Assembly (NCBI GenBank): GCA_018970725.1 | Contig: JAGWVU010000027.1 | Coordinates: 1 to 64,000, forward strand | Reading direction: 5' to 3' | DNA length: 64,000 nucleotides | DNA from: Verrucomicrobiota bacterium | GTDB taxonomy: Bacteria; Verrucomicrobiota; Verrucomicrobiia; Verrucomicrobiales; DEV007 | Shown: positions 48,701 to 64,000 of the stretch, piece after piece | How the letters are laid out: every line of letters starts with the position of its first letter | Numbering within the stretch: the stretch's first letter is position 1 | Translations under genes and position numbers: made by a program | Notes under the pieces: model-generated | Told to the model about the DNA's origin: nothing | The model's input: only the letters and a program-made list of their open reading frames with translations | Databases searched by the model: none

Positions 48701-51700
48701 GACGACGCTTCCCGCCGGTTCACTGAGGACGACCGGGATCTCGAGGGCCGCGCTGTTTTCCGGTTGCGAGGATGAGGCGGCGGCAAAACCGAGGACAGGC
48801 GGGGCGGAGACCACGTCGTCATCCACGATGGTGTAGGTGAACGTGGGGGAACCGCCGCCGATGACTGCCGCCGTGGGGTTGCGCAGCAGCACGTTCACGA
48901 ATTCCAACGGTTCCACGAAGAGGTCATTGGTCACGTTGAGCGTGATGTTCCGGGTCTGCTCGCCTGTGGAGAACGAGAGCACGCCGGGGGTGAGGCTGTA
49001 ATCGATGCCGTTCCCTTCCCCGGATTGGGTGGCGGAAAGCCGGGCCCGCCACTCGACCGGACCGCTGCCAGTGCCGGTGAGGCAGAAGGAGACCGCCCGC
49101 GCCCGGTAATTCGTGGTTTCCCGGGCCATGATTCCCGCCTGGGCGTTGGCGGTGGAGATGGCGGTGATCCGGGTCGTGAACGAAAAATCACCGGTGACGG
49201 GGACACAGAGGAAATGGCCTTCATCCTCCGTGGAAGAAGCGGATGGCAGCAGGCCGGAACCGGCGCCGGAAATCACGCAAACGCCCGCGTTCCACGTGGA
49301 GAATCCCCCGGGATCAAGGAAACCGATGGTGCGATCCTGAAAGGAGGAGGACGGAGCCGGGTTGAGATTGACGTTGTCGAACGTGCCTTGGGCCAAGGCG
49401 CCATCGGCCCGGGAGGAAACCGCCAGCCCGACGAGCAACTGGGAGCCGAGGCCCAGGGTTTGCGGACCTCCGACCGGGGTGAAGGTGAGGCCGTCGGTGG
49501 AGGTGGAGGCGGTGAACTCGTTTCCGGTCCGGGCCAGGCGAAGCCAGCCGGGCTTGGCCACGTCCGGATTCGTTCCCGAGGCGTTGGTGGCGCCCCCATT
49601 CGTGGTGCTCCGGTAGGATTGGGAAGGCGGACCGGTGCCGGTATGGAAGGCCATGCGCATGGCACCCGCGGCGGTGGAATCCCGGATCATGACACCGGCT
49701 TTGGGGGAAGAGGTGCCGGTCAGGTTCACGATGCGCGCCGTGACCGTGCAGTTCGCCGAGTTGGTGACCGGGAAGTAAACGAAGCGGCATCCGTCCGAAG
49801 AGGTGGCGGCCACATCGGGGCCACCGCCGCTCACCTGATGGACTCCGCTCCGGACCTGGCTGGCTCCCTTGGGCGAGGTGGAGCCGATCTCGTTCGCGGT
49901 CATGGCTCCGGCGCTTCCTCCCGCGCTCAGGCCGGTGACACTGAAGTTGTCGATCGTGGCCAACGCGGTGGCGGAGGACGTGCCGCTGGTCACGAAAATA
50001 CCCGCGAGGTAGGAAGTGGAGGAAAGGTTCAAGGTCCGCGCCAAGCTTTGCGTGGTCCACGTCACGCCATCCGGCGAGGTGCTGGTGGCGAAGCTCGTGC
50101 CGGTGCGTTGGATGCGCACCCAGGTTCCCTGGAGAAAGGTCGTGTTGCGGGTGCCCGCCTCCAGAGTGTATTCCACCGAGACCGGCCCGGCGGCGGGAGC
50201 ATCGAGGGAAACCGGAATCGCGACTTCCGTCAGACTTTCGGAACCAGCCCCGCCCGGTGTCTCGAAGGCCACGCTCCGCGTCCCGTTGTCATCATCGGAG
50301 ATCCAGAGGATCCCGTTGCCGCCCCTTGCATAACTTCCCGGAGCGAGCTGGAGAATCACGGTCTCCGTGCCCTCGAACACCGCGTCGGACACGGTGTTGA
50401 AGCTGAGATCGACCCCGGCCGCGCCTGCCGGAATGACCACGCTCCCGGTCAAATTGGTGTTCGTGTAGTCCACCCCCGCCGTGGCGGTGCCGCCGAGCGT
50501 GTAGTTCACCGTGAGGGCGTTGGTCGTGGCTCCGGTGCGCGACACAAAAAACTTCAGGGTGGTCGTGGTGGTGCCCTCGGCGATCACGTCCGAGCCTCCG
50601 GTTCCCACCTGACCGTCCACGAAAACGGTGGGCTGTTCGTCATCGCGCAGGGACATCGTGGCGGCGGCGAGCGGCTCCCAGAGCGCATAATTCGGGCTCG
50701 GTGAAAGGGTGAGCGTGATGTTTTCCATCTCTTCGGGGCTGGTGTCGTTGAGCACCGTCAGAGTGAGGTTGGAAGTCACGGTGCCGCCAGTCAGGGTGAT
50801 CGTGGTGGTCCCGGTGAGGGTGGCCGGATTCAGACCGGTGAGGGTGTAATCACTTCCCGCCGTGGCGGTCCCGGTGATGGTGTAGTTCACCGTGAGGGCT
50901 CCTGCGGTCCCTCCCTTTGCGGTGATCCGGAACGTCCCGTTGCCGGACGGCTCCGACGCAATGCCGGAAGACGCGGTGACCTCGAGGAGGGGTTTGTCCG
51001 TCGGGGCATCGTTAAGGGTCACCGTGGCGCTCCCGTTGGCCCCGGCCTGATAGAAACCAAAGCCCGAACCGATGGCGAGGACGACCGTTTCCGCCCCTTC
51101 CCCGAAGTTGTCGCTGCGCGGCATGATGGTGATGGACGCCTGCGCCCGGCCCGCCGGAATGATCACCGAACCCGGCAACGCATCGTAATCGACACCATGC
51201 AGAGCCGTGCCCGCAACGCTGTAAAACACGGTGAGCGGGGCGGCGGTATCGCCCGACCGCGTGATCAGGAAGGTGCCCGGATCCGGGAGCCCGGTCCCCG
51301 CTCGGTCCACCTCGGTGGCGTTGGCGTCCGCCGCCGTCACGTTCACCGTCCGCGTGTCGTCATCGATCAATCGCACCGTCACCGTGTTGGCGCTGACGTC
51401 CGCAATCAGGTTGGCGGTGCCGGAAATCGAAAGGGTCAGGCTCTCGGTCGATTCCGCCTCCGGATCATCGAGCGGTTGGATGACGAAGGAGGCCGACGCC
51501 GCGCCGCCCGGGATGGTGACCGTGCCGGGGAGCGCGAGGTAATCGGCCCCGCTCGTCGCCGTGCTGGTGGCCGCCACGGCATATGGCACCGTGAGCGCGT
51601 CGGTCGTTGCTCCGGTGCGGGTGACCGTGACCGTGACCGGAGCGCCCGCCTCGGACGTCTGGGCATCGCCCGCGGTGAGCGATACCCGCGGCAGGCTGCT

Positions 51701-54427
51701 GTTCGCGTCCTGGATGGCGACGGTGGCGCTGTTTTTCGCGCCGGGGACATACGAGGTATCGTTGGCGAGGACCAGCGTGACCGTCTCATACCCCTCGGAG
51801 CTGCCATCGTTGCGGGCGGCGACCGTCACATCGACGAAGCCGCTGCCGGCAGGGATGGTCACACTCTGGAACACCCCGGCCAAGACCAAGTCGGGAGACA
51901 AGGTGTAATCTCCGGTGGTGGTGGTTCCCTTGGCCGCGGTGCCCTGCGGCGCGAAAAGGAGCACCGCTTGCGCCAAGCCGTCCGGTCCGGTGCGCGACAG
52001 GCGGAAAGTACCCGAAGACCCGCCCTCGACGGCCACAGGAGAAACCGCCTCGATGGCGATGACGGGCAGATCCTCCGCGGTGAAATCCGCGCCGCTGAAA
52101 GAGGGCCCGACCGTGACGCTGTTGTTGAACAGCTCGCTGAAGACGAGTCCGTGGGCGGCGGGAGTGACGCTGTAGTTTCCGGCGGCGAGATTGGCGATGG
52201 TGAAGCAGCCGTCGCTATCCGTGAGCGTGCCGTTGGCGCCTCCGGTGCCGACGTTGACGTTGGGGATCCCCGAGCCGTTGCGGGTGATCCGGCCGGAGAT
52301 GGTGAACCGGTTGTTGCCATTGCCCACGGTGATGACGGCATTGCGCACCGCCAATCCACCCTTCATGTCCGAAACGACGCAACTTAGGGTGTAGACACCG
52401 GCCACGGAGAAGGACCGGGTGACGGTGGGTCCGTTTCCGGAAATGACGTTGTCGTGCCATTGCCAGGAATAGGCGAGCGTGTCGCCGTCAGGGTCCGAGG
52501 CGGAAGCGGTGAAGGTCACGTTGGTACTGAGGGGAACCACCGTCGAGGCCGGCGTGAGTTGCAACAAGGGGGCCCGGTTGGAGGGGAACGTTCCCAGGTT
52601 CACCACCACATCGAGACTTGCCGGCATGGTGTTGTTCACGGCCAGCGTGGTCAGGTGGATCCCGCTCTCGATATCGGAAAACGTCCGCCCCACCGTGATC
52701 CCGGCATCGCTTTTGCCATTGATCGAGCCGGGGGTGGTATCGAGCAGCTGCTGGTTGCTCCCTCCGTTGGCCGCCCATTTCCATCCCAAGAGCAGGCCAC
52801 TGTTCGTCCAGTTGTTGCCACCGAGGAGACGGTATTCCCCCCAATAGGTCCGGTCGTTGTCCTTGCGGAGGCGCAAAGCATAACGCTTGCCCGGCTCCAA
52901 CCCGGCCTGGTCAAACCGATGCACCCGGTAGGTCCCGCTCGCGGTGACCGGGGGCGCGAACTCGTCCGGCATCCATCGCACCTGGTTCTTGGCCTGGGCG
53001 TTGTAGTGACCGTTGGGCGGGCTCGCTCCGCCCATGTTGTCATAATTGTTGCCATATTCGACATTGCCCCCGGGCCCGATGACCGAGGCGCCGTTCGTTT
53101 CCCAAAAATTGGCATGGGCCAGCAAGAAGGCATGCCCGATCTCATGCGTCGCGGTGCTGACGCTGTCCACCCGCATCCAAACATTCCCGCTGCCGCCGTA
53201 GCTGGTGGGCGCACGGGCCCCGCCGTTGGCCCGGACCACGGTGGCATGGTAATCCTGCCAGTCATAGCCGGCCCGGCGCGCCGCCTCCTTGGCATGGCTC
53301 ATCTCCAGACCGAGGCCATCAATCTCCTTGATGAACCCCGACGTCGTGTCCTTGCCGGAATACCACGCCCGGTTGTGCGGCAACCGGACCGGAGGCGTGA
53401 CCGTGGCCACCAAGGTGAGGCGGCCGAACGAGTTGGCCTGATAAAAATCCGCCGATTGCCTCATCATGTCGTAGGCCCCCGCCTCCGTGATCGGCGTCTC
53501 GTTCTGGTCCGTGAAGATGGCGGGAATGAAGAGCACCTTCACCACCCCGACCGACGGCGTCGCCGCCGCAGGCAGAATCCCCGTGAAACTCTGCGCGCCT
53601 CCACTGCTCGACTCCCCTTGGATCAGCAGGCGCTCGAACACTTCCGTATGGCTGCCGTCGCAAAGGTAAACCACTTCACCATTCGCCACCACGGCCGGCG
53701 TCTCCGTGGTGATGGCTTCTCGCACCGGGTCGAACACCGTGCGCCTCCCCGACACCGGGCACACGGTCACCCGCGGCAGGCCGGCCGGCGGAAACTCCCC
53801 CGGTTCCATCACACGGAGCGGACGCTCGTCGAGCGCCAGTTGCCCGTCCACGCTCACGCCAATGACCGACAGGTTCGGCACCCATTCCACCGACTCCGCG
53901 CGCCGACCGAAGACATGGGCCTCGTAGGTTTCACCTCCGACCGTCTCCACCTGACGAACCTGCGGAGGTTGGCCGGCCGCCACGGATTCCGGGCCCGCCT
54001 GGTAAACGCGCATCACCCCGCGGGCCGCCACCCGCCGCTCCAACAAGGCCTCAATTTCCGGGGGCAGTTTTTGCCGGGTCACCACCGGGACGGCTTGACG
54101 GAGCGCTTCCCGCGGATCCTCGCGGATCAACGCCTTAAAGCGCGCCCGGCGTTCCCTTGCCAGGTTCACCCCCTCGGCCACCCAATCCGGATTCCCCGCG
54201 TCCAGATAGTCTTCCACCCAACGGGAGAAGTCGAACACCGGATCTCCGGAGCGATCCGCCGGAGGCCGCGGCCCGTTTGCGCCGACCACCCGGGCCGCAG
54301 GGGAAACCGGACTTTCCCGGGAACCCGTCTCCCTCCGCGCGCCATCCTCCGGCCGGGCTCCCGGTCCGGGCCAAACCAAGACCAGCGCCAACATCCCCGC
54401 CAGGAAGAGCGGGAGGCGGAAGCGCAT
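45749..54427 (-). CDS. Giant secreted M6-like metallopeptidase with Calx-beta and concanavalin-like modules
   Basis: A 2892-residue exported protein. A signal peptide (about 1-25) is followed by a propeptide-like region to about 290. A zinc peptidase domain lies at about 290-600, with H428-E429-I-G-H432 and a third His at 438 (HExxHxxxxxH), closest to M6 immune-inhibitor-like peptidases. Next are a PKD domain (about 617-705), a carboxypeptidase-regulatory-like domain (708-788), nine Calx-beta domains (about 789-2210) and a second PKD-like domain. Two concanavalin-like (DUF1349-like) modules follow, then a calcium-binding DPDGDG tail ending in a beta domain. The sixth Calx-beta is split by residues 1427-1800. 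It probably digests protein at the cell surface with calcium-stiffened arms. Confidence 0.85.
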   Translation of the reverse strand: MRFRLPLFLAGMLALVLVWPGPGARPEDGARRETGSRESPVSPAARVVGANGPRPPADRSGDPVFDFSRWVEDYLDAGNPDWVAEGVNLARERRARFKALIREDPREALRQAVPVVTRQKLPPEIEALLERRVAARGVMRVYQAGPESVAAGQPPQVRQVETVGGETYEAHVFGRRAESVEWVPNLSVIGVSVDGQLALDERPLRVMEPGEFPPAGLPRVTVCPVSGRRTVFDPVREAITTETPAVVANGEVVYLCDGSHTEVFERLLIQGESSSGGAQSFTGILPAAATPSVGVVKVLFIPAIFTDQNETPITEAGAYDMMRQSADFYQANSFGRLTLVATVTPPVRLPHNRAWYSGKDTTSGFIKEIDGLGLEMSHAKEAARRAGYDWQDYHATVVRANGGARAPTSYGGSGNVWMRVDSVSTATHEIGHAFLLAHANFWETNGASVIGPGGNVEYGNNYDNMGGASPPNGHYNAQAKNQVRWMPDEFAPPVTASGTYRVHRFDQAGLEPGKRYALRLRKDNDRTYWGEYRLLGGNNWTNSGLLLGWKWAANGGSNQQLLDTTPGSINGKSDAGITVGRTFSDIESGIHLTTLAVNNTMPASLDVVVNLGTFPSNRAPLLQLTPASTVVPLSTNVTFTASASDPDGDTLAYSWQWHDNVISGNGPTVTRSFSVAGVYTLSCVVSDMKGGLAVRNAVITVGNGNNRFTISGRITRNGSGIPNVNVGTGGANGTLTDSDGCFTIANLAAGNYSVTPAAHGLVFSELFNNSVTVGPSFSGADFTAEDLPVIAIEAVSPVAVEGGSSGTFRLSRTGPDGLAQAVLLFAPQGTAAKGTTTTGDYTLSPDLVLAGVFQSVTIPAGSGFVDVTVAARNDGSSEGYETVTLVLANDTSYVPGAKNSATVAIQDANSSLPRVSLTAGDAQTSEAGAPVTVTVTRTGATTDALTVPYAVAATSTATSGADYLALPGTVTIPGGAASASFVIQPLDDPEAESTESLTLSISGTANLIADVSANTVTVRLIDDDTRTVNVTAADANATEVDRAGTGLPDPGTFLITRSGDTAAPLTVFYSVAGTALHGVDYDALPGSVIIPAGRAQASITIMPRSDNFGEGAETVVLAIGSGFGFYQAGANGSATVTLNDAPTDKPLLEVTASSGIASEPSGNGTFRITAKGGTAGALTVNYTITGTATAGSDYTLTGLNPATLTGTTTITLTGGTVTSNLTLTVLNDTSPEEMENITLTLSPSPNYALWEPLAAATMSLRDDEQPTVFVDGQVGTGGSDVIAEGTTTTTLKFFVSRTGATTNALTVNYTLGGTATAGVDYTNTNLTGSVVIPAGAAGVDLSFNTVSDAVFEGTETVILQLAPGSYARGGNGILWISDDDNGTRSVAFETPGGAGSESLTEVAIPVSLDAPAAGPVSVEYTLEAGTRNTTFLQGTWVRIQRTGTSFATSTSPDGVTWTTQSLARTLNLSSTSYLAGIFVTSGTSSATALATIDNFSVTGLSAGGSAGAMTANEIGSTSPKGASQVRSGVHQVSGGGPDVAATSSDGCRFVYFPVTNSANCTVTARIVNLTGTSSPKAGVMIRDSTAAGAMRMAFHTGTGPPSQSYRSTTNGGATNASGTNPDVAKPGWLRLARTGNEFTASTSTDGLTFTPVGGPQTLGLGSQLLVGLAVSSRADGALAQGTFDNVNLNPAPSSSFQDRTIGFLDPGGFSTWNAGVCVISGAGSGLLPSASSTEDEGHFLCVPVTGDFSFTTRITAISTANAQAGIMARETTNYRARAVSFCLTGTGSGPVEWRARLSATQSGEGNGIDYSLTPGVLSFSTGEQTRNITLNVTNDLFVEPLEFVNVLLRNPTAAVIGGGSPTFTYTIVDDDVVSAPPVLGFAAASSSQPENSAALEIPVVLSEPAGSVVTVDYSLTAVSATADADFVAAGGTLTFLPGQTLASVSAVLLDDPNVEPGETFTVALGNPSGAIISGSGTHTVTILDDDTPTVTLTVPDATATEGGDGGAFAISRTGPVTGALTVNFTRSGSAVSGSDYTAIPASGSVTIPDGAESAVVTVATLQDSIAEVAETVILTLASGAGYNPGSPATGTVTIHDDDVNTVSLIASDPDASEFAGNGGQFQLSRSGPLTASLTVSLSVTGTATAGSDYTAIPTSHTFASGSNTITIPLTVMQDTLTEGNEVVVVSLNSSSGYLNGSSAVASVTLVDDDLPPAVFIGSPVGKSTIISADNGLVLTATASDDGLPSPLTYTWTQLFGPGATSFGDPAAATTTAVFTSPGVYGLRVTVSDGQFSASDDLFVQNGGFSSASWISQDQGPPVTRGIAGESSGSFVLLGSGSGYSGNNDSGHLLFRQLFTATGDAVLVARLTSLTGPATRLAGITLRDSSWKGGRRVNLLQDGSGTVQFRQRATLNTADSSSTVTGSSVPLWLKLERSGGVVTASHAADESGSPGSWITDGTSTVAMNNNLIVGLVVSAGSSTTATATAIFDNLSVTPGFSGPALHSEDLGNYPLAGSSTESAGTVTVTAYGSHDGSGGHFRYQQIWGDCVITARLTNHNGSFRGAQSGIGLRDTTDNGAFAFYGNTTVDGYQVHWRSTPGGSSGTLQSSGAGFLRLVRKGNTVNAYKASSLSGPWALNSGNLPVILTGPLQVGLIVDSASNSVSATGTFTNFSVTPLNTAPVVQVAISGTGASPVALDGTVTDDGQPSPPAAISSEWSKVSGPGTVTLANPLLEDASAILSLNGPYTLRLTAGDGDTVTFKDLSFTGYKSGFNHWLASSGTGDPDNDLAEASADPDGDGLLNLLEYAVGTNGTLTGPFPQVLSLAPVGSDRFLRLSIPKNPAATDVTFIVEVSGDLENWSRSGLIIEADTATLLTVRDYLPATNGQTRFMRVRVSR
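47800..52075 (-). repeat. Array of nine Calx-beta repeats
   Basis: The repeats encode about 110 residues each and share TVTIPxGxxSAxVxVxxxxDxxxExxExVxLxL and a closing DDD. Copies begin near 52070, 51710, 51370, 51010, 50660, 50300, 48820, 48480 and 48130. The large step between copies six and seven is caused by the inserted 1122-bp segment. The copies are clearly diverged, not recent duplicates, and can be aligned only at protein level. Confidence 0.8.
49028..50149 (-). other. 1122-bp in-frame insertion splitting a Calx-beta repeat
   Basis: These 374 codons (residues 1427-1800) hold the C-terminal half of a concanavalin-like module (TWVRIQRTGTSF onward), one complete module, and the N-terminal half of another that ends VEWRARLSAT. 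The flanks, ending LEAGT and resuming QSGEGNGIDYSL, join into one normal Calx-beta domain. Both borders fall at a Thr codon inside the same five bases, CACCC on the coding strand. The two half modules together make one complete module, so the segment reads as a circularly permuted pair. Confidence 0.65.
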
Positions 54428-55584: not shown

Positions 55585-56441
55585 TCCCCCACCCCGGCGA
55601 ACCGGAACACGACGTCCCGGTCGGCTCGTTCGCCTGCCCGGCGGAAGCGGAGGACTACGCCCTCGCGGCCCTCGCCCTCGGCCGGGAAACGAGCTTGCGC
55701 CGGGAGAATGGCGCGTTCGTGATCCTCGCCGCCGCCGCGGACGCGGAAACGCTGCGGCGCGAGTTCGCCCTCTACGCGGCCGAGCGCGCCGCCTTCCCCG
55801 CGGAACGCGAGGCCCCGGAACCGAGCCCCTTCCGCGGCGGCCCGGACCAGGCCCGGGTCCCGACCCTGCTTTGGATCTTGGGCCTGCTCGCCGCCTATCA
55901 CGGCCAGAGGGAAATTCCCGGATTCACGGATCGCTTCGCCAACTCCTCGCGGGCGCTCCTGGAGCGGGGCGAATGGTGGAGACCCTTCACCGCGCTCTTT
56001 CTGCACGCGGACCTCGGCCACCTCTCCGGCAACCTCGTGTTCGGGGCCGCCTTGTTTTCCTGGGTCACCTCCTGTCTCGGCCCACGGGCCGGATGGCTCG
56101 CGATCTTCGCCAGCGGCACCCTCGGCAACCTGCTCGCCGCCTGGATCCAACATCCGGCGGACCCCGGCTACCAATCCCTCGGTGCCTCCACCGCCCTCTT
56201 CGGCGCGCTCGGCATCCTCACCGCCCTCTCCACCCGGCATCGCCGGCGCGAGGTCCAAGCCTCCCCCGCCCGGCCAAAGCCCAAGCCCTGGTCCAGCCTC
56301 GGCCCGGCCGTCGCGGGCCTCATCCTCCTCGCCTGGCTCGGCGCCGGGGAACGCCCCACCGACGTCCTCGCCCACACCCTCGGCTTCGCCGCCGGATGCC
56401 TGTCAGGATGGTGCGCCGCAGGACGCCGGACAGCCGCTTGA
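55581..56441 (+). CDS. Rhomboid family intramembrane serine protease
   Basis: A 286-residue membrane protease. An N-terminal cytoplasmic domain of about 95 residues is followed by six or so helices. Motifs are WWRPFTALFLHADLGHLSGNL near 137-157, GASTALFG with the catalytic Ser near 203 and AHTLGFAAG with the catalytic His near 264. The start is GTG at 55581, overlapping the channel gene by four bases. The longer frame upstream is a shadow. Whether the two products work together is unknown. It is the last gene before the change in base composition. Confidence 0.88.
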   Translation: MIPHPGEPEHDVPVGSFACPAEAEDYALAALALGRETSLRRENGAFVILAAAADAETLRREFALYAAERAAFPAEREAPEPSPFRGGPDQARVPTLLWILGLLAAYHGQREIPGFTDRFANSSRALLERGEWWRPFTALFLHADLGHLSGNLVFGAALFSWVTSCLGPRAGWLAIFASGTLGNLLAAWIQHPADPGYQSLGASTALFGALGILTALSTRHRRREVQASPARPKPKPWSSLGPAVAGLILLAWLGAGERPTDVLAHTLGFAAGCLSGWCAAGRRTAA

Positions 56442-56746
56442 ACGGTCCGGAGGTTCCCTCACCCAACCGCCGCGCCCGGCAAAGCCGAAGACCAAACGTT
56501 CAACCTGCTTGAGGATCTCCCGCTTTTCCCTTTCCCCGAATCAAGCCGAACCGGGGGGGCATTGCGGTCGGAAAACAGGGGGGATGGGCCCTGAGGAAAA
56601 AAGCGAGGTCGTTCACCTTTCGGCCGGGACCTGCCCAAATCGCATCACTGACTTGACCACATGGAAAAATTGGGGTTTTCTCATGACGCATCGGCCGCAG
56701 GCAAATTCCCATTTGTCCTTTGCACCTGATTGAATCTCTCTACCCT
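56442..56746. other. Intergenic left border of the defence island
   Basis: About 300 bases without a supported gene. GC content falls through this stretch from the level of the rhomboid gene to that of the island. It includes a G7 run at 56552-56558 and TTGACC at 56653-56658, followed after 17 bp by TTTTCT, which is a weak promoter candidate for the island operon. No tRNA, integrase, terminal repeat or insertion sequence is seen at the border. Confidence 0.45.
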
Positions 56747-56917
56747 ATGGAAGATCCGATAGACGAACTACGGAAAATTATCGAGCAATCGGGATCTGAC
56801 GTGGAAACAATTTTTGGGCCAGCATTGACCATCTTCGCCGGGAACCGCGCAGCTGCGAGAGAATTGAATGAAAAGCTGGGGGAACTTGAGCGCCTGATCA
56901 GTCAAGAGCCTCAGTGA
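56747..56917 (+). CDS. Small protein at the head of the defence operon
   Basis: A 56-residue acidic, probably helical protein (MEDPIDELRKIIEQ, then LNEKLGELERLIS at the C-terminus). No family is recognised. It ends twelve bases before the DndD-like ATPase gene, so it is likely co-transcribed and may be a partner of that ATPase. The ATG at 56747 is preferred to a TTG at 56720. Leucine spacing in the last third fits a short coiled coil. Confidence 0.6.
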   Translation: MEDPIDELRKIIEQSGSDVETIFGPALTIFAGNRAAARELNEKLGELERLISQEPQ

Positions 56918-56929
56918 TTTTGGCGGATT

Positions 56930-59062
56930 ATGATCATTCGCAAACTGACATTACATCATTTTCTGTCCTATCACGGAGTCCAGGCGATTGAATTGCCTGG
57001 CGCCGAACAGGACCGTTTGGTGATCGTGGTCGGACCGAACAACACTGGCAAAACATCCCTCATCCGGGCCCTTAAGTTTTGGTTTTATGGCGAAAAAGGG
57101 GTAGCGACAAGAGCGGATCTGTCCACTCTCCCCAACAACAAAGCCAAAGCCGAGACCGAGGTCGGAAAAACCTTGGAGGCTTGGGTCGAAGTGACATTCG
57201 AGCATGAGACCACTCAGGGCAGGGAGACCGTGACCCTTCGCCGGACGATCGAAGCAAAAAAGGTCAGTGCCCTGCAGTGGGAGGTTCGAACGATTTCCCT
57301 CAAACACATCGTTCCTCGCGCCAACCCGGACAATTCCGAACCAGCCCTTCAGCGATGGGAGCGTCTCCTCGAAGGATTGATGCCCATGGCCCTCTTTGAT
57401 GCCTTCTATTTCAAAGGAGAGCCACTGGACGGGAAACTTCTGGAAGACGTAAACACGATTCGGCCGGCCCTGGGACTTTTTCTGCACGAGGATCAATGGC
57501 GGGAAGCGGAATCTGCAGCGGCTAGGATTCGCGATAAAATGGATACGCAGTTGAAAAAATTGGTCCAAGCGAACGCCGAACTTACGAAGGCGATTGAGAG
57601 TCGAAGAGAGCTTGAAGAGCGACTGGAATCACAGCAGAATGCGCTTCAGGGTGAGCTCAATAAGAAGGCGGATCTGGAGGCGGAGGAGAATAGAGAGACC
57701 GACAAGCTCTCCAAACTCGGCGATGAAGAAGCGGCCAGAGAGGCAAGAGCGCAACTCGACCGGGCACGTCAAAGCGAGCAAAGCGCCAATCATCGGCAAT
57801 CCAAAGCCAATGGCGATTTGGGGCAAGCGATCAATATGTCTCTGGGCCTGCCCTTTCTTCAGAGTGCGATCGCACCAGTGAGGGAGATCCTGACGGAAAT
57901 GGAGCGAGAGAACATCCTGCCCGCCGACATATCGGAAGGATTCGTGGACCGCGTTCTTGCCCGTAGCAATTGCATTTGTGGCCGGGAACACGATCGGGGC
58001 TCACGGGAATCCTGGGAAACCTATCGAAAAAAGACTCTGGCGGCCGACATCAACGAAGGGCTCTCCAAATTACTGAATTGGGTCAAACCGGACGGCCATC
58101 TCTCGGTCGCCAAACGCGCCTCTGACTCCGTGGATGAGATCCACCGACTCCTCCATGAGCGCAGGAGTGCAGTGGCAGACGCGAACGAAGCCCGGGCGAA
58201 GCGACAAGGAGCGGAAACGATCCTTGCCAACCTACCTCACGAAGAAATCGCCCGGATTGGCACAGCCCTCCGGCGTCTTCGCGAGGAGATCCGGACCACC
58301 GGCGCCCGGGTGGCCCACATTCAGAGGACTTCCGAAGCGACGGCATCCAATCTGAGGCAACAACAGGAAAAGGTGGCGGCTCTTAGCGCTCGGGGCGGTG
58401 TGAATCAGCGAGAATTCGAAAACGTTCAACGCTCCCGGGACCGGGCCCACCGGCTGTACACGGCACTAACCGAGTGCCGGTCCCGGCTCGGCACTTACTT
58501 CCATCGGGTCCTACAAAACGACGTTTCCGCCTCCTATGATTCCAAGGCAACGGACGGAAGTCGCGCCATCATCGACCGACGGACCTTGCTCCCTTCCATC
58601 CAAGTCCAAGGCCAACGAATCAATCATCTGGGGGGCGGTCAATCCCAATTTCTGGCTTTGGCCTATGTGGTGGCGTTGGCCCGACTGCGCCAGAATATGC
58701 ATGCCGAAATGGAAAGATTGGGTGTTCGCCTGGGGCGGATCAGCGACTTGTCGTTTTTCATGGATTCCCCACTCGGAAACATGGAGGAGCATTACAAGAC
58801 AGCCGCGACCCTTTTGGCTCCAGGTTGCGCAAAACAGGTGGTCCTCCTTCTGTGGAAAGAAGAGTGGGACTTTGTGCGGCCGCTTCTCGAGGAACGGGCG
58901 ACCGCCATCCACGCGGTGGAGTTTCACACGCGCGCCGAAGATTACGAAAAATTGTCCCTCGAAGCCCCGCACTACAAATTCGGGAGTGGAAGCCTGCAAC
59001 TGATTCATCCCCTGCCACCGGAAGATGACCAGCCTCGCAGCAAGCTCATCCAGATCAAGTAA
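56930..59062 (+). CDS. DndD-like SMC/Rad50-type ATPase
   Basis: A 710-residue ATPase that resembles DndD of the DNA phosphorothioation systems and other coiled-coil defence ATPases. Walker A is GPNNTGKT (35-42). Long coiled coils span about 190-300 and 400-520, with a CxCG hook at C348 and C350 between them, as in the zinc-hook region of Rad50. The ABC signature LGGGQSQFLALAYV lies near 566, and Walker B with D-loop, FFMDSPLGNM, near 605. It is followed with no gap by the next gene. GC is lower than the preceding genes. DndD-like is a family resemblance; this copy could also belong to a Rad50-type defence branch. Confidence 0.82.
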   Translation: MIIRKLTLHHFLSYHGVQAIELPGAEQDRLVIVVGPNNTGKTSLIRALKFWFYGEKGVATRADLSTLPNNKAKAETEVGKTLEAWVEVTFEHETTQGRETVTLRRTIEAKKVSALQWEVRTISLKHIVPRANPDNSEPALQRWERLLEGLMPMALFDAFYFKGEPLDGKLLEDVNTIRPALGLFLHEDQWREAESAAARIRDKMDTQLKKLVQANAELTKAIESRRELEERLESQQNALQGELNKKADLEAEENRETDKLSKLGDEEAAREARAQLDRARQSEQSANHRQSKANGDLGQAINMSLGLPFLQSAIAPVREILTEMERENILPADISEGFVDRVLARSNCICGREHDRGSRESWETYRKKTLAADINEGLSKLLNWVKPDGHLSVAKRASDSVDEIHRLLHERRSAVADANEARAKRQGAETILANLPHEEIARIGTALRRLREEIRTTGARVAHIQRTSEATASNLRQQQEKVAALSARGGVNQREFENVQRSRDRAHRLYTALTECRSRLGTYFHRVLQNDVSASYDSKATDGSRAIIDRRTLLPSIQVQGQRINHLGGGQSQFLALAYVVALARLRQNMHAEMERLGVRLGRISDLSFFMDSPLGNMEEHYKTAATLLAPGCAKQVVLLLWKEEWDFVRPLLEERATAIHAVEFHTRAEDYEKLSLEAPHYKFGSGSLQLIHPLPPEDDQPRSKLIQIK

Positions 59063-59512
59063 ATGGCCAGCATCCGCATTCCCGAATCCGCGATCGATCT
59101 GCTGCCTCTGTGCCGTCGATACGACGGGAACAATTCAGATCCTTTGATCACGCCTTGCTTCGATACCTACGCTGACCTGTTGGTCTTTGCGGCCTCCTTC
59201 GGATTTCGCGAAATGTCCGGGGCACTGCCCAATCGCACGACCCGGTTTGCGGATTCCCCATACCCGATCGATCTGGCGATTTTCAAAAATGACCGGAGGT
59301 ATCCTCAGCTTCTCCTCATTGCGCTCGCGGCGTCCCAGGATCGAAATGTGGTTCGGGATGAAGACCTGATCTGCAAGTTGACCGAAGACTACGCGGCCTT
59401 CGGATGCGAACGCATCAAGCGCCTGCTTGATGCCAGTCCCGGCCTCGCCCATGTCACAATTGCCCAGCGGATCGCGGAAGAAGCGAACCCCGGTCCAGGC
59501 GATCAAATCTAA
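59063..59512 (+). CDS. Dnd system-associated protein 4-like
   Basis: A 149-residue cytoplasmic protein. The stretch FDTYADLLVFAASFGFRE (about 33-50), then PIDLAIF and LLLIALAASQDRNVV, resembles the small family annotated as DNA phosphorothioation (Dnd) system-associated protein 4. Its molecular role is not established. It starts on the base after the ATPase stop (TAAATG), so translation is coupled. It sits 25 bases before the helicase-nuclease gene. I recall the family from pattern, not from a search. Confidence 0.65.
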   Translation: MASIRIPESAIDLLPLCRRYDGNNSDPLITPCFDTYADLLVFAASFGFREMSGALPNRTTRFADSPYPIDLAIFKNDRRYPQLLLIALAASQDRNVVRDEDLICKLTEDYAAFGCERIKRLLDASPGLAHVTIAQRIAEEANPGPGDQI

Positions 59513-59537
59513 GCCACGATACTCCCCCACCTGCGAG

Positions 59538-61658
59538 ATGCTTCCTTCACTGAACCTTCGTCTTTGCTACCGGACGGTCCGGGACGATTTGGTTCGGGAC
59601 TTTTTCGTTCCCTGCCTGGACGCCTCGATTCTCTACCGGCGCAGTGCCGGATACTTCACGAGCGCGGGCTTGGCCTTGGCTGCCAGGGGCGTGGCCAGTT
59701 TGGCGGCGCGCGCTGGGGAAATGCACCTCGTGGCCTCCCCGCACCTTGAACCGGATGACGTGGCCGCCTTGCAGCGAGCCATCGATCGCCCGGCGGACAT
59801 TCTTCACTCCATCGCGGCCCGCTCCCTGGACGACATCGAGGACGCGTTGATCCGCGACCGGCTCAACGCGTTGGCCTGGCTCGCCGCTTCCGGTCGGCTT
59901 CAGGTGAAGATCGCCGTCCGGGTGAACCAAACCGGGTCCGTGGAACGCGGGATTTTCCACGAGAAATCAGGAGTGTTTTCCGATGAAGCCGGGAACCAGG
60001 TCGCCTTTACCGGATCTTCGAACGAAACCGCCGGCGGATTGGTGGAGAATTTCGAGAGCATCGACGTGTTCCGATCTTGGAACGATCCCGAAGGCCGCGT
60101 CGCCGAGAAGGTCGCCAACTTCGACGCGCTTTGGTCCGACGAGGCGCCTGGGCTCCGGGTCGTCGCTTTTACGGACGCCTCCAGGGAATTGCTGGAGCGG
60201 TTCCGCGATCCGGATTCGCCCCCGGACGGGATGACCTGGACTCGGGTCGCCCAACCCTCTCCGAGCCGTTCCTTTCGCCTTCCCGCCGGACTGGAACTTC
60301 GCGAATACCAGAAGGAGGCGATCCGAGCTTGGAGCAAGGCTGGGGGCCGGGGCATCCTCGCCATGGCCACGGGGACAGGCAAGACGGTCACGGCCCTCGC
60401 CCTTGCTAGCAAGGTCGCGGAGAAGAACTCGCCCTTCGTCCTCATCGTGGTCTGCCCCTTTCTCAATCTGTGCAAACAATGGATGCGCGAGATGGCGGCC
60501 TTCGGGCTGCGGCCGTTGGGCTGTTATGAGGCAAGTGACCGGTGGCGCCCTCGCTTCGAGAGCGGATACCAAAGTCTCGCGGCGGGGCTCTCCACGGTCC
60601 ATGCCATCGTCACCACCAACGCCACCTTCCAGAGCGAGATCTTCCAGAGCTGCCTCAGACCTCACCTTGCCGGAGGCACCAAATTCCACCATCTCCTCAT
60701 CGCCGATGAGGTCCACAACCTTGGCGCCAAGGCGGTGAGCGAAGCCCTGCCCGAGGCGATCACGCTGCGCCTTGGCCTCTCCGCCACGCCAGAGCGTCAC
60801 CTCGATCCCGTGGGCACCGGTGCCGTGCTCGACTACTTCGGCAAGGTCATCTACGAATTCGCCCTGCCACAGGCCATCGCCGAGGGGCGTCTTTGCCGCT
60901 ATCGTTACCATCCCCTCCTGGTGAACCTTACCGATGAGGAATCCCAACTCTACGCGGAAATCACGTCCAAGCTGGGACGCCTTCTCGCCGGAAGTGAGAA
61001 GGATCCCGAGCTGGGCCAGGCGGCCATGGCGCTGCTCATCCAGCGGGCACGGCTTCTCGCAGGGGCCGAAAACAAGATCCCTGCTCTGGACCGATTGCTC
61101 ACCTCGCTACCCGAAAAGCCGAGCCGGGCCATCTTCTACTGCGGTGACGGCACCACCACCGACAAGATCCGCGACGAGGAGGTGCGGCAGATTCAGGCCG
61201 TCTCGCGGCTGCTCGGGGAAAAGCATGGATTGAGGGTCCGCAACTTCACCTACCTCGAGTCGCCAGCAGAGCGCGAGGAAATTCTGCGCGATCTCGCCAG
61301 TGGATTTTTGGATGGCGTAGTCGCGATTCGGTGCTTGGATGAAGGCATCGATCTCCCCGACCTCCGCATGGGCTTTCTCCTCGCCAGTTCCACCAATCCC
61401 AGGCAATTCGTGCAACGTCGCGGACGCATCCTGCGCCAGGCTCCGGGGAAGAAGTTCGCAGAACTCTACGACTTCGTCGTGGCGCCGGCGGAACTGGGGA
61501 GCGAGGTGGACGACGCGGCTTTCAATCTGGAGAGATCGCTCTTTCGGCGGGAGCTTAAGAGGATAGAGGAGTTCTGTAATACGGCGGAGAACGGGCCGGA
61601 AGCTCAACTACGCATCCGGGAAATAAGAACTACACTCAACGCACTGGGCGCAACCTAG
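59538..61658 (+). CDS. PLD-nuclease/DEAD helicase, phosphorothioation-system restriction protein type
   Basis: A 706-residue protein. The N-terminal part (about 1-190) is a phospholipase-D-type nuclease domain: CLDASILYRRSAGYFTSAGL near 25, then FHEKSGVFSDE with the HxK at about 141, and FTGSSNET. The superfamily 2 helicase part has motif I MATGTGKT near 275, motif II ADEVHN near 390, SATPERH near 413 and QRRGRILRQ near 624. The N-terminal sequence closely matches my memory of proteins named DNA phosphorothioation system restriction enzyme. It probably finds and cuts DNA lacking or bearing the mark. The ATG at 59538 is chosen because the family starts at this point. Confidence 0.85.
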   Translation: MLPSLNLRLCYRTVRDDLVRDFFVPCLDASILYRRSAGYFTSAGLALAARGVASLAARAGEMHLVASPHLEPDDVAALQRAIDRPADILHSIAARSLDDIEDALIRDRLNALAWLAASGRLQVKIAVRVNQTGSVERGIFHEKSGVFSDEAGNQVAFTGSSNETAGGLVENFESIDVFRSWNDPEGRVAEKVANFDALWSDEAPGLRVVAFTDASRELLERFRDPDSPPDGMTWTRVAQPSPSRSFRLPAGLELREYQKEAIRAWSKAGGRGILAMATGTGKTVTALALASKVAEKNSPFVLIVVCPFLNLCKQWMREMAAFGLRPLGCYEASDRWRPRFESGYQSLAAGLSTVHAIVTTNATFQSEIFQSCLRPHLAGGTKFHHLLIADEVHNLGAKAVSEALPEAITLRLGLSATPERHLDPVGTGAVLDYFGKVIYEFALPQAIAEGRLCRYRYHPLLVNLTDEESQLYAEITSKLGRLLAGSEKDPELGQAAMALLIQRARLLAGAENKIPALDRLLTSLPEKPSRAIFYCGDGTTTDKIRDEEVRQIQAVSRLLGEKHGLRVRNFTYLESPAEREEILRDLASGFLDGVVAIRCLDEGIDLPDLRMGFLLASSTNPRQFVQRRGRILRQAPGKKFAELYDFVVAPAELGSEVDDAAFNLERSLFRRELKRIEEFCNTAENGPEAQLRIREIRTTLNALGAT

Positions 61659-61670
61659 GAAAATTGCTTC

Positions 61671-63503
61671 ATGCAGATTCAGTCCGAACCACAAAAGCTT
61701 GAAAGCATCTTCCACGGCGTCACTACTCGATACGCTGTCCCGCACTATCAGCGGGATTACAGCTGGAATCAAGACCAGTGGGCGGAGCTGTGGAACGACA
61801 TCACAACGGCGTTTAGAGGGAACATGGAATACTTCCTCGGAAGTATTGTCCTCAACACTGAGAATCTTGAAACGCAAGGAGTATACGAAATCGTAGACGG
61901 TCAGCAGCGGCTGACGACTTTCACGATCCTCTTCTCGGTAGTGCGGGACCTCGCGCTTCACTATAGCCAAAACCCATCAGACAGTGCTTACGTTGCGATG
62001 GCGCTTAACCATCAAGAGAATAAAGCTAAAGCGAATCGAGCAGTCGCCAAAGCAAACCAGCTTGTCGTTCACTACAGCGAGCCGGACAACTACTTTTTGC
62101 GCCTCAACGACAAGGACCACCAGACTTTCCACGAGAAGATCCAAAAGGAGGGACTTCCGCTCCTCAGCAAAGAGGAGCGACAAACGTATAAGGCCGAATC
62201 TCGCCTTACAAAGGGCAAAAAGTTTTTCACCCGTAAAGTTCTAGATGATTTCCTCAATGACGATCAGGGCTTCGTCCAGTTGGAGAGATTCGTCACCTTT
62301 TGTATGACCAAGCTAGTACTGTTGCGGATTGCCGTCGGCAGTGACAATGACGCCTACCTCCTTTTTGAGACCCTTAACGACCGCGGGCTTGATCTCTCGA
62401 TTTCAGACCTCGTCAAGAACCGCTTGTTGCTTGGATGCGACGGAAATGAGGAAACAAAGAAGCGCGTACTGGGGAAGTGGAACGAGCTGATCACCAGACT
62501 CGGCAAATCCAGGTTCCTGCCGCAGGATTACCTTCGGTTCTACTGGAACGCATTCGAAGGGAAATGCACCAAGAAGGAGCTCTATCGGCTAATTCGGGAA
62601 AAACTCGCCTCGATGAATGGCGAACAGCTCCTGGATGCCTGGCTCGAAAGCTCGGAGTTCTTCTGTGAGATTACTGACAATTCGCTCCGCTTTCCCCACT
62701 CCGCATTGCGTCTCGGATCGACACGGTGCAGCTACGCCGAGCTGAATACCCTCGGCTACTCCGTTTACATTCCACTCTTCCTCTATCTTCGTCGCCACCG
62801 GCGCTCGTTGCTGGACAAGATCACAGGCCCATCTGCGTCTTATCTTTTCCGAATCATCACGGTGGGAAGTTTTTCGGCGGGAAGGCCGGAGAGCCGGTTC
62901 GAGAAAATCCAGGAAGCGGTTAAGCGGGGCGACTCCGACGAAGCCGTGCTTGGAATTTTTGCTTTGGATCCGGAGGCAGCAGACGATAAATTCCAGGAAC
63001 GGATCCGGACGCAGAGATTCGAGGACAACAAGGCTGCGCGGCATTTCCTCTCCAAGTGGCACCTAAATGAATGTGGCGAGGGCCATCCGCTCAATCAAGA
63101 TGTCCAATTGGAACACGTCTTACCTCAGAAGGAAGACGCCTGGTCCAGTTTCAGTGTGGCTGGACGGGCGCGTGAGGATTGGGTCTATTGCATTGGCAAT
63201 ATGACCCTCCTCGAGCAAGGGCTAAACAAGTCAGTGCAAGCGTCCGATTTCGCAACAAAGGTGATCCGTTACCGTCAGCGCGACTCACAGAATCCCAATG
63301 GCTCGTCGCTTCCCATGACTTACCGGATCGCTGCCGCGCACGATCACAGCGGCAGGATTTGGGACCAAGCCTGGATTACGGAACGCGCTGAGACCTTCGC
63401 CGCCGGGGCCGCCGCCATCTGGCCACTGCCACCCGCTGTTCCGGCAACTTGCGAGAGCCAGGGCGGGGTCTCGTCAGTCGAATCTGAAGACGGAATGTTC
63501 TAG
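61671..63503 (+). CDS. GmrSD/SspE-like DUF262-DUF1524 restriction nuclease
   Basis: A 610-residue fusion. The N-terminal DUF262 domain has VPHYQRDYSWNQDQW near 24 and the nucleotide-hydrolysis motif DGQQR at 76-80. The C-terminal DUF1524 domain carries an HNH-type site in VQLEHVLPQKED (about 480) and YCIGNMTLLEQGLNKS (about 505). In GmrSD this pair cuts modified DNA, and in SspE the same domains sense phosphorothioates and nick DNA. It has AGGAAA eight bases before the ATG and starts 12 bases after the helicase gene. GC is the lowest of the island and codon use differs from the core genes. Confidence 0.88.
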   Translation: MQIQSEPQKLESIFHGVTTRYAVPHYQRDYSWNQDQWAELWNDITTAFRGNMEYFLGSIVLNTENLETQGVYEIVDGQQRLTTFTILFSVVRDLALHYSQNPSDSAYVAMALNHQENKAKANRAVAKANQLVVHYSEPDNYFLRLNDKDHQTFHEKIQKEGLPLLSKEERQTYKAESRLTKGKKFFTRKVLDDFLNDDQGFVQLERFVTFCMTKLVLLRIAVGSDNDAYLLFETLNDRGLDLSISDLVKNRLLLGCDGNEETKKRVLGKWNELITRLGKSRFLPQDYLRFYWNAFEGKCTKKELYRLIREKLASMNGEQLLDAWLESSEFFCEITDNSLRFPHSALRLGSTRCSYAELNTLGYSVYIPLFLYLRRHRRSLLDKITGPSASYLFRIITVGSFSAGRPESRFEKIQEAVKRGDSDEAVLGIFALDPEAADDKFQERIRTQRFEDNKAARHFLSKWHLNECGEGHPLNQDVQLEHVLPQKEDAWSSFSVAGRAREDWVYCIGNMTLLEQGLNKSVQASDFATKVIRYRQRDSQNPNGSSLPMTYRIAAAHDHSGRIWDQAWITERAETFAAGAAAIWPLPPAVPATCESQGGVSSVESEDGMF

Positions 63504-63505
63504 CC

Positions 63506-63691
63506 ATGCCCGACCAACCCCAACCACCCACAAACCTCACCCGAGCCCAGCAAACCTTCAAATCCTCTCCCGAGGAACTCCAACGGCTCATCCGGGAGAT
63601 TCTCGAAGAGGAACGCAAGGTCATGCACAAACTCCGTCGGCCGAACATCCATCAGAACCTTTACGACCACGTTAAGCGCGTCATCCGATGA
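63506..63691 (+). CDS. DNA modification system-associated small protein-like
   Basis: A 61-residue basic protein. The segment EEERKVMHKLRRPNIHQNLYDHV (read as two halves, about residues 33-55) resembles the short proteins annotated as DNA modification system-associated small protein, which sit just before dndD-like genes. It starts two bases after the GmrSD-like stop and its stop overlaps the start of the second DndD-like gene (ATGA). Its function is unknown; the tight coupling suggests a subunit or regulator of the ATPase. Confidence 0.65.
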   Translation: MPDQPQPPTNLTRAQQTFKSSPEELQRLIREILEEERKVMHKLRRPNIHQNLYDHVKRVIR

Positions 63692-64000
63692 TCCTGGAGC
63701 GTCTCGTCTTTGAAAACTTCCGGCAGTTCAAGGGCCGGCAAGAGCTGGTCCTTTCAGACTCGCGGGATCGGAATGTGACCGTGGTGCATGCGGAGAACGG
63801 CTTCGGCAAGACCACCATTCTCAAAGGCCTTCTTTGGGTGCTCTACGGGCGCGACGGGTTGATGGGGACGGACGGGCAGCCGGACGACTTCGAGATGCCC
63901 GACCGGATCCTCAACGAAGGCGTCGCGGCTCAGGCGAGCGATCCCACGCGGGCAGAGGCGGTGATCGAGCTGGCGTTCAAGCATGAGGGCGACCGCTACA
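63688..64000 (+). CDS. Second DndD-like ATPase, 5' part only
   Basis: The frame is open from the ATG at 63688 to the window end and gives 104 residues, truncated by the edge. The start MILERLVFENFRQFKG and the Walker A AENGFGKTT (35-43) are typical of DndD and SMC-like ATPases. A helix after Walker A ends LLWVLYGRDG, as in DndD. It overlaps the small-protein stop by four bases. It differs from the ATPase at 56930, so this is a second family member rather than a repeat copy. The rest of the gene, and perhaps dndB, dndC or dndE-type genes, would lie downstream. Confidence 0.75.
   Translation, partial: MILERLVFENFRQFKGRQELVLSDSRDRNVTVVHAENGFGKTTILKGLLWVLYGRDGLMGTDGQPDDFEMPDRILNEGVAAQASDPTRAEAVIELAFKHEGDRY

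What the first reader, a model, noticed from the sequence alone, without database searches (positions are those of the whole stretch)
56747..64000. Variant phosphorothioation-linked defence island
Seven tightly packed genes of lower GC combine a DndD-like ATPase, a Dnd-associated protein 4-like protein, a PLD-helicase of the phosphorothioation restriction type, a GmrSD/SspE-like nuclease, two small proteins and a second DndD-like ATPase. Established knowledge: Dnd and Ssp systems put sulfur into the DNA backbone, with separate restriction modules. No dndC (sulfur transfer) or dndA is inside the window. The gene order, with restriction genes between two ATPases, is not one I know.
Basis: partly seen in the sequence, partly recalled or inferred. 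Interest (0 to 1): 0.75.

Follow-up and report, generated by a model that had tools for sequence, protein, structure and literature searches.

The report
PbeABCD-type defence with duplicated scanner
This is a bacterial anti-virus gene cluster of a known kind (PbeABCD, usually partnered with sulfur tagging of DNA), unusual because it carries two different DNA-scanning ATPase sets around one nuclease-helicase; the sulfur-tagging genes were not found, but part of the island is missing from the assembly just where close relatives keep them.

Summary
The "DndD-like" ATPases are CxC ABC-ATPases (PbeC), the PLD-helicase is PbeA, the "Dnd-associated protein 4" genes are the DndE-type partners (PbeD), and the small genes are PbeB-type proteins. 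Continued past the window, the operon is SP1-CxC1-DndE1-PbeA-GmrSD-SP2-CxC2-DndE2, and the contig ends inside DndE2. What differs from textbook PbeABCD: (i) an extra SP-CxC-DndE triad upstream, from another CxC clade; (ii) a GmrSD/DndI-like gene inserted between pbeA and pbeB. A Verrucomicrobiaceae MAG and a same-family genome also have two triads, but their first triad is unrelated (22% identity), so that position looks exchangeable. Of 27 other Pbe loci, only these two have two triads. No DndC or true DndD was found in the assembly. However, all five closest Pbe loci carry a convergent dndBCDE module within about 2.2 kb of DndE2. Our island is split by an assembly gap: contig C81 resumes at the far side of the insertion site. 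Absence of PT modification is therefore unproven, and a dnd module in the gap is the likelier reading. Verdict: new variant of a known kind, moderately interesting.

The parts
56747..56917 (+). SP1, 56-aa small protein (PbeB position of triad 1)
   Evidence: resembles the small protein at the same position in L073 (local score 59, none of 2000 shuffles reached it)
56930..59062 (+). CxC1, 710-aa CxC-type ABC ATPase with coiled coil and Zn-hook (PbeC-like, divergent clade)
   Evidence: PADLOC PbeC 7.8e-51; Walker A GPNNTGKT, CIC hook, GGGQ signature, DSP Walker B; groups with L073 CxC, 34% identity, support 100
59063..59512 (+). DndE1, 149-aa DndE-type partner (PbeD-like)
   Evidence: NCBIfam dnd_assoc_4 4.7e-10, 39.8 bits against a cut-off of 74.25; 37% identical to the L073 DndE; AlphaFold/Foldseek against DndE 4lrv not significant
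59538..61658 (+). PbeA, HKD/PLD nuclease fused to SF2 helicase, 706 aa
   Evidence: PADLOC PbeA 3e-228; dnd_restrict_1 600 bits, at the cut-off; HxK...GSxN, GTGKT, DEVH and QRRGRILR motifs intact; 74% identical to L005
61671..63503 (+). GmrSD-type (DUF262-DUF1524) protein, 610 aa, inserted between pbeA and pbeB
   Evidence: Pfam GmrSD_N 1.9e-38, GmrSD_C 1.2e-14; PADLOC Orf5 1.9e-138, HEC-06 8.5e-89; nearest solved structure 9jfl = DndI, E 1e-16; DGQQR and EH..P/GN.TL motifs intact
63506..63691 (+). SP2, 61-aa small protein (PbeB)
   Evidence: 66% identical to L005 SP2; conserved ERxVMHxxRRxxIH motif in the clade
63688..64000 (+). CxC2, PbeC; continues past the window to contig position 65790 (700 aa), followed there by DndE2 (PbeD, from 65787, truncated by the contig end at 66123)
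   Evidence: CxC2 PADLOC PbeC 3.3e-138, 82% identical to L005 CxC2; DndE2 dnd_assoc_4 73.0 bits over the truncated 112 aa, 78% identical to L005 DndE2
56396..56746 (.). left border of the island: similarity to the empty site of G074 stops at about 56395, near the 3' end of the rhomboid gene

Best explanation
It is a PbeABCD-type (CxC ABC-ATPase/DndE) antiviral island. Two SP-CxC-DndE triads are the DNA-scanning and recognition units; PbeA (HKD nuclease fused to an SF2 helicase) is their common effector; a GmrSD-type nuclease is added as cargo. The PbeA-SP2-CxC2-DndE2 core is the ancestral set, and triad 1 is an added set taken from another Pbe lineage without that lineage's own PbeA. Working model (inferred, not shown): the ATPase clamp with its DndE partner scans incoming DNA for a motif, DNA lacking the host's backbone mark is engaged, and PbeA then blocks or cuts it. 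Self DNA is probably marked by a DndABCDE phosphorothioation module that sits in the unassembled part of the same island.
For: Family identity of the genes. CxC hook invariant in 14 of 14 aligned ATPases, both of ours included. The core clusters with L005, L037, L041 and L071 in the PbeA tree (100, five rows) and with those plus L039 in the CxC tree (100, six rows). In all five of these loci a convergent dnd module (dndE first) begins within about 2.2 kb of DndE2, with dndC present. Triad 1 groups with the complete system of L073, where it sits beside a different PbeA and near dndDCB. Contig C93 ends inside DndE2 and contig C81 ends 70 bp before the J-domain gene, the far side of the empty site seen in G074, so an island stretch of unknown length is missing. 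In H. jeotgali, pbeABCD needs PT modification to block virus SNJ1 (PMC6459918).
Against: No DndC and no true DndD in the 96.5%-complete assembly. The same DndC model found four genomes of the family, including the three Pbe carriers G007, G025 and G052, so it works as a control. 13 of 27 other Pbe loci show no DndC in the stretch fetched; some of these have Ssp or methyltransferase neighbours instead. Sharing of one PbeA by two triads is inferred from gene order only.
Confidence: 0.65

Rival explanations
1. Two systems merely lie side by side: triad 1 is the leftover of a second Pbe system that lost its own PbeA, and it has no function with the second set.
For: L037 carries the fuller form, PbeA0-SP1-CxC1-DndE1-PbeA-SP2-CxC2-DndE2, and L005 the same without PbeA0, as expected for stepwise loss. 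Tandem piling-up of defence systems is common (general knowledge).
Against: Triad 1 is intact in frame and in ATPase motifs; junctions are tight enough for one operon. A PbeA-less triad in front of a complete set occurs in two loci with unrelated triads (window and L005, 22% identity), which is unlikely if such triads are only decaying. No PbeA remnant was found upstream.
Confidence: 0.35
2. A Pbe system without phosphorothioation in this organism, either idle or paired with another mark such as methylation.
For: No DndC or DndD in the assembly; 320 of 553 pbeAC in PMC6459918 had no dnd genes nearby; plasmid Pbe loci with methyltransferases.
Against: 5 of 5 closest core relatives have dnd genes adjacent, and our island is cut exactly there. 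The own genome was not searched for methyltransferases.
Confidence: 0.25
3. The GmrSD gene is not part of the Pbe machine but an independent modification-dependent (type IV) or general restriction nuclease that moves between defence operons.
For: It is absent at this place in L005, L037, L071 and L039, while L041 has three other genes there. The two annotated plasmid homologues examined sit in a type I R-M operon and in another non-Dnd neighbourhood. Its GC is 0.54 against 0.63 for PbeA.
Against: Its nearest solved relative is DndI, a PT-sensing nickase (9jfl; PMC11662687), but identity is low and the shared motifs are general to DUF262 proteins.
Confidence: 0.5

Closest known systems
PbeABCD of Haloterrigena jeotgali A29 (Xiong et al. 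2019, PMC6459918)
   Same: The four components and the order A-B-C-D in PbeA-(GmrSD)-SP2-CxC2-DndE2
   Different: Extra SP-CxC-DndE triad in front, GmrSD gene between A and B, and dnd genes not found in the available assembly
CxC ABC-ATPase/DndE-centred systems (Rakesh et al. 2024, PMC10853773)
   Same: CxC Zn-hook ATPase with DndE partner, small protein and HKD-SF2 helicase; often beside DndD-DndE systems
   Different: That paper counts DndD plus CxC tandems and duplicated DndDE; in the main text read I found no case of two CxC triads with one PbeA. Its supplements were not readable.
DndI with IscS-DndBCDE (PMC11662687, PDB 9jfl)
   Same: DUF262-DUF1524 layout, YQRxYxW and DGQQR motifs; best PDB match of the GmrSD protein
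   Different: Low identity; sits inside a pbe operon rather than beside dndFGH; PT sensing untested
SspE (PADLOC SspE models; SspABCD-SspE)
   Same: DUF262-DUF1524 layout
   Different: SspE models score about 1e-14 against 1.9e-138 for Orf5; the cassette holds no SspB, SspC or SspD
DndD (NCBIfam TIGR03185)
   Same: Coiled-coil ABC ATPase
   Different: Both ATPases score well under the cut-off, have the CxC hook and fall outside the DndD clade

Membership tests
PbeABCD / CxC-DndE system | PbeA: HKD nuclease fused to SF2 helicase | tested here: met
PbeABCD / CxC-DndE system | PbeC: coiled-coil ABC ATPase with CxC Zn-hook | tested here: met
   both ATPases
PbeABCD / CxC-DndE system | PbeD: DndE cognate (dnd_assoc_4) | tested here: met
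   DndE2 73.0 bits though truncated (cut-off 74.25; its L005 orthologue has 92.3); DndE1 39.8 bits, below the cut-off but E 4.7e-10
PbeABCD / CxC-DndE system | PbeB: fast-evolving small protein before PbeC | tested here: met
   SP2 and SP1 by position and by relatives; no curated model matched
PbeABCD / CxC-DndE system | gene order A-B-C-D | tested here: inconclusive
   kept for PbeA...SP2-CxC2-DndE2 but with GmrSD inserted and an extra B-C-D in front
PbeABCD / CxC-DndE system | linked PT-modification genes (dndCDEA) | tested here: inconclusive
   none in the assembly, but the island is interrupted by an assembly gap and 5 of 5 closest relatives have them
PbeABCD / CxC-DndE system | PT-dependent antiviral activity | not testable with these tools
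   needs phage assays and DNA chemistry
DndD-based modification module | DndD above curated cut-off, with DndC | tested here: not met
   52.5 and 145.4 bits against 245.85; no DndC in the assembly
DndI | DUF262-DUF1524 with DGQQR | tested here: met
DndI | linkage to dndBCDE and PT-stimulated ATPase | not testable with these tools
   gap in assembly; biochemistry needed (PMC11662687)
SspE | linkage to sspBCD | tested here: inconclusive
   no ssp gene in the cassette; the whole genome was not searched for Ssp

The most novel reading that the evidence does not exclude
A two-specificity Pbe machine: two unrelated, exchangeable CxC-DndE scanning triads with different DNA targets serve one shared PbeA nuclease-helicase, much as alternative specificity subunits serve one type I restriction motor, with the upstream triad position working as a swap slot for new specificities.
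Probability: 0.3. Interest if true: 0.62.

Novelty: new variant of a known kind. Interest (0 to 1): 0.42.

Why it matters
How PbeABCD recognises foreign DNA and what PbeA does to it is unsettled: Xiong et al. saw no cleavage, while Rakesh et al. argue for it. Loci in which a second, unrelated scanning triad has been placed in front of one PbeA offer a natural swap experiment: if the triad sets the target, exchanging it should change which DNA is attacked. The locus also shows that the pbeA/pbeB junction accepts extra nuclease cargo.

Tried and rejected
Reading the ATPases as DndD was rejected (below cut-off, CxC hook, tree). A single-protein scan of genome contigs gave one locus only, so relatives were taken from the genome search and plasmids. 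Searching for a C-terminal DndE2 fragment on another contig found none. Looking for relatives of CxC1 in 388 genomes of the phylum and in plasmids gave only matches of about 23% identity; a profile search then found L073. The single-sequence fold of DndE1 was poor; the alignment-based fold reached pLDDT 80, but Foldseek gave no significant match, with E. coli DndE 4lrv third at E 3.2, so the DndE assignment rests on dnd_assoc_4 and on position. Promoter and terminator scans gave no more than chance. CxC2 had no PDB relative by sequence.

Full report
What is there. Eight genes on the + strand form one tight block: SP1 56747-56917, CxC1 56930-59062, DndE1 59063-59512, PbeA 59538-61658, GmrSD 61671-63503, SP2 63506-63691, CxC2 63688-65790 and DndE2 from 65787, the last two continuing past the window. 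The contig, C93, ends at 66123 inside DndE2. Family searches name the parts: PbeA (PADLOC 3e-228; NCBIfam dnd_restrict_1 at 600 bits), PbeC for both ATPases (7.8e-51 and 3.3e-138), dnd_assoc_4 for both DndE-type proteins, and GmrSD_N/GmrSD_C for the DUF262-DUF1524 protein.

What the ATPases are. Both fall well below the DndD cut-off (52.5 and 145.4 bits against 245.85), both carry the CxC hook, which is invariant in 14 of 14 aligned relatives, and both lie outside the DndD clade. They are CxC-type ABC ATPases. Rakesh et al. (PMC10853773) showed that PbeABCD is the CxC ABC-ATPase/DndE system, with PbeA the HKD-SF2 helicase, PbeB the small protein, PbeC the CxC ATPase and PbeD the DndE partner. 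The locus therefore belongs to a described system. Catalytic motifs are intact in PbeA, GmrSD and CxC1 and, from the alignment, in CxC2.

What is different. PbeA-SP2-CxC2-DndE2 is a complete set. In front of it stands a second SP-CxC-DndE triad, and a GmrSD gene lies between pbeA and pbeB. The core is 66-82% identical to that of a Verrucomicrobiaceae MAG (L005). L005 and a genome of the same family (G025, L037) also have two triads, but their first CxC forms a separate clade from ours; the L005 one is only 22% identical to ours. Our first CxC groups instead with that of L073 (G663; 34%, support 100), where it stands in a complete system with its own, divergent PbeA (30% to ours), a similar small protein and a dnd module nearby. 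So the upstream position has been filled by unrelated triads. L037 keeps a second PbeA before its first triad; L005 and our window do not. Of 27 other loci with both PbeA and CxC that I read (14 chromosomal, 13 plasmid), only L005 and L037 have two CxC genes. GC content agrees with a mosaic: PbeA 0.63 and CxC2 0.62, against CxC1 0.56, DndE1 0.57, SP1 0.50 and GmrSD 0.54.

Is there a sulfur-modification module? A DndC model and a DndC protein find nothing in the assembly, and a DndD model finds only our two CxC proteins and an unrelated weak hit. The DndC model does find four genomes of the same family, so it works. But the five loci closest to our core (L005, L037, L039, L041 with L074, L071) all have a convergent dndE-D-C-B module starting within about 2.2 kb of DndE2, and in those with enough flank a cysteine-desulfurase-like gene (dndA-like, judged from its YLDCNATTP start only) follows. 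In two genomes of the same genus the site is empty: G074 has TrkA channel, rhomboid, J-domain gene, carB, and G073 has TrkA channel, J-domain gene, carB. In our genome, similarity to this site stops at 56395 of C93, and contig C81, which carries carB and the J-domain gene, ends 70 bp before the J-domain start, aligning with G074 from about its third base. The island is therefore inserted near the 3' end of the rhomboid gene and is interrupted by an assembly gap of unknown length. Absence of dnd genes cannot be concluded; their presence in the gap is an inference from synteny. My estimate is about two in three.

The GmrSD gene. Its nearest solved relative is DndI (9jfl, E 1e-16), a PT-sensing nickase that works with IscS-DndBCDE (PMC11662687). 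But the best PADLOC models are Orf5 and HEC-06, the two annotated plasmid relatives examined lie in a type I restriction operon and in another non-Dnd setting, and the gene is missing at this place in most close relatives, while L041 has three other genes there. I read it as exchangeable cargo; a PT-sensing role is possible but untested.

Mechanism. Shown here: gene content, intact motifs, clade membership, exchange of triad 1, island borders and gap. Known from the literature: PbeABCD blocks viral DNA replication in a PT-dependent way in a haloarchaeon (PMC6459918). Inferred: each CxC-DndE pair scans DNA for a motif, PbeA is the common effector, and host DNA is spared through phosphorothioation. 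The main rival is that triad 1 is a leftover of a second system. Against that, two unrelated triads have ended up in the same PbeA-less position and ours is intact.

Limits. Organism names are not given for the G-handle genomes; the phylum is inferred from L005 (Verrucomicrobiaceae). Supplements of the two key papers were not readable, so an earlier mention of double CxC triads cannot be excluded. Trees were quick ones with SH-aLRT support only. The groupings used here have support of 98 or more, but the CxC1/L073 pair sits on a long branch, so its deeper placement is unsure.

Noticed in passing
L080 (Rhizobium indigoferae plasmid), L107 (Sphingomonadaceae plasmid), L077 (G544): Pbe cassettes next to what look like Ssp-type genes (cysteine desulfurase, DUF4007, large ATPase, PAPS reductase) instead of dnd genes: Pbe seems to pair with single-strand PT systems too.
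   Followed up: partly
L080 9345-14145; L044 9164-13800: Alternative gene order with PbeA last (SP-CxC-DndE-PbeA in L080; CxC-DndE-PbeA in L044).
   Followed up: partly
L005 4489-7050, L037 235-3153, L041 3207-6251, L061, L062, L109: A large protein with a sigma-70 region 4 domain repeatedly accompanies Pbe genes; role unknown.
   Followed up: partly
L073 13252-14241; L109 6412-7497: RelA/SpoT-like synthetase genes close to Pbe/Dnd loci in two unrelated genomes.
   Followed up: no
L041 6272-9012: Between PbeA and the following genes lie a 707-aa DndB-like protein and a 204-aa protein with a weak GIY-YIG match, at the place where the window has GmrSD.
   Followed up: partly
L005 14952-15809: A PT-DNA-binding restriction endonuclease gene (NCBIfam NF045808, 219.8 bits) sits between DndE2 and dndE: a PT-cleaving type enzyme beside a PT-making module.
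   Followed up: no
L105, L106, L081: Pbe loci on plasmids beside DNA methyltransferase genes, with no DndC in the stretch fetched.
   Followed up: partly
window 45749-54427 (-): A 2892-aa protein with several Calx-beta and PKD domains, close to the island's left flank and also present in G073.
   Followed up: no
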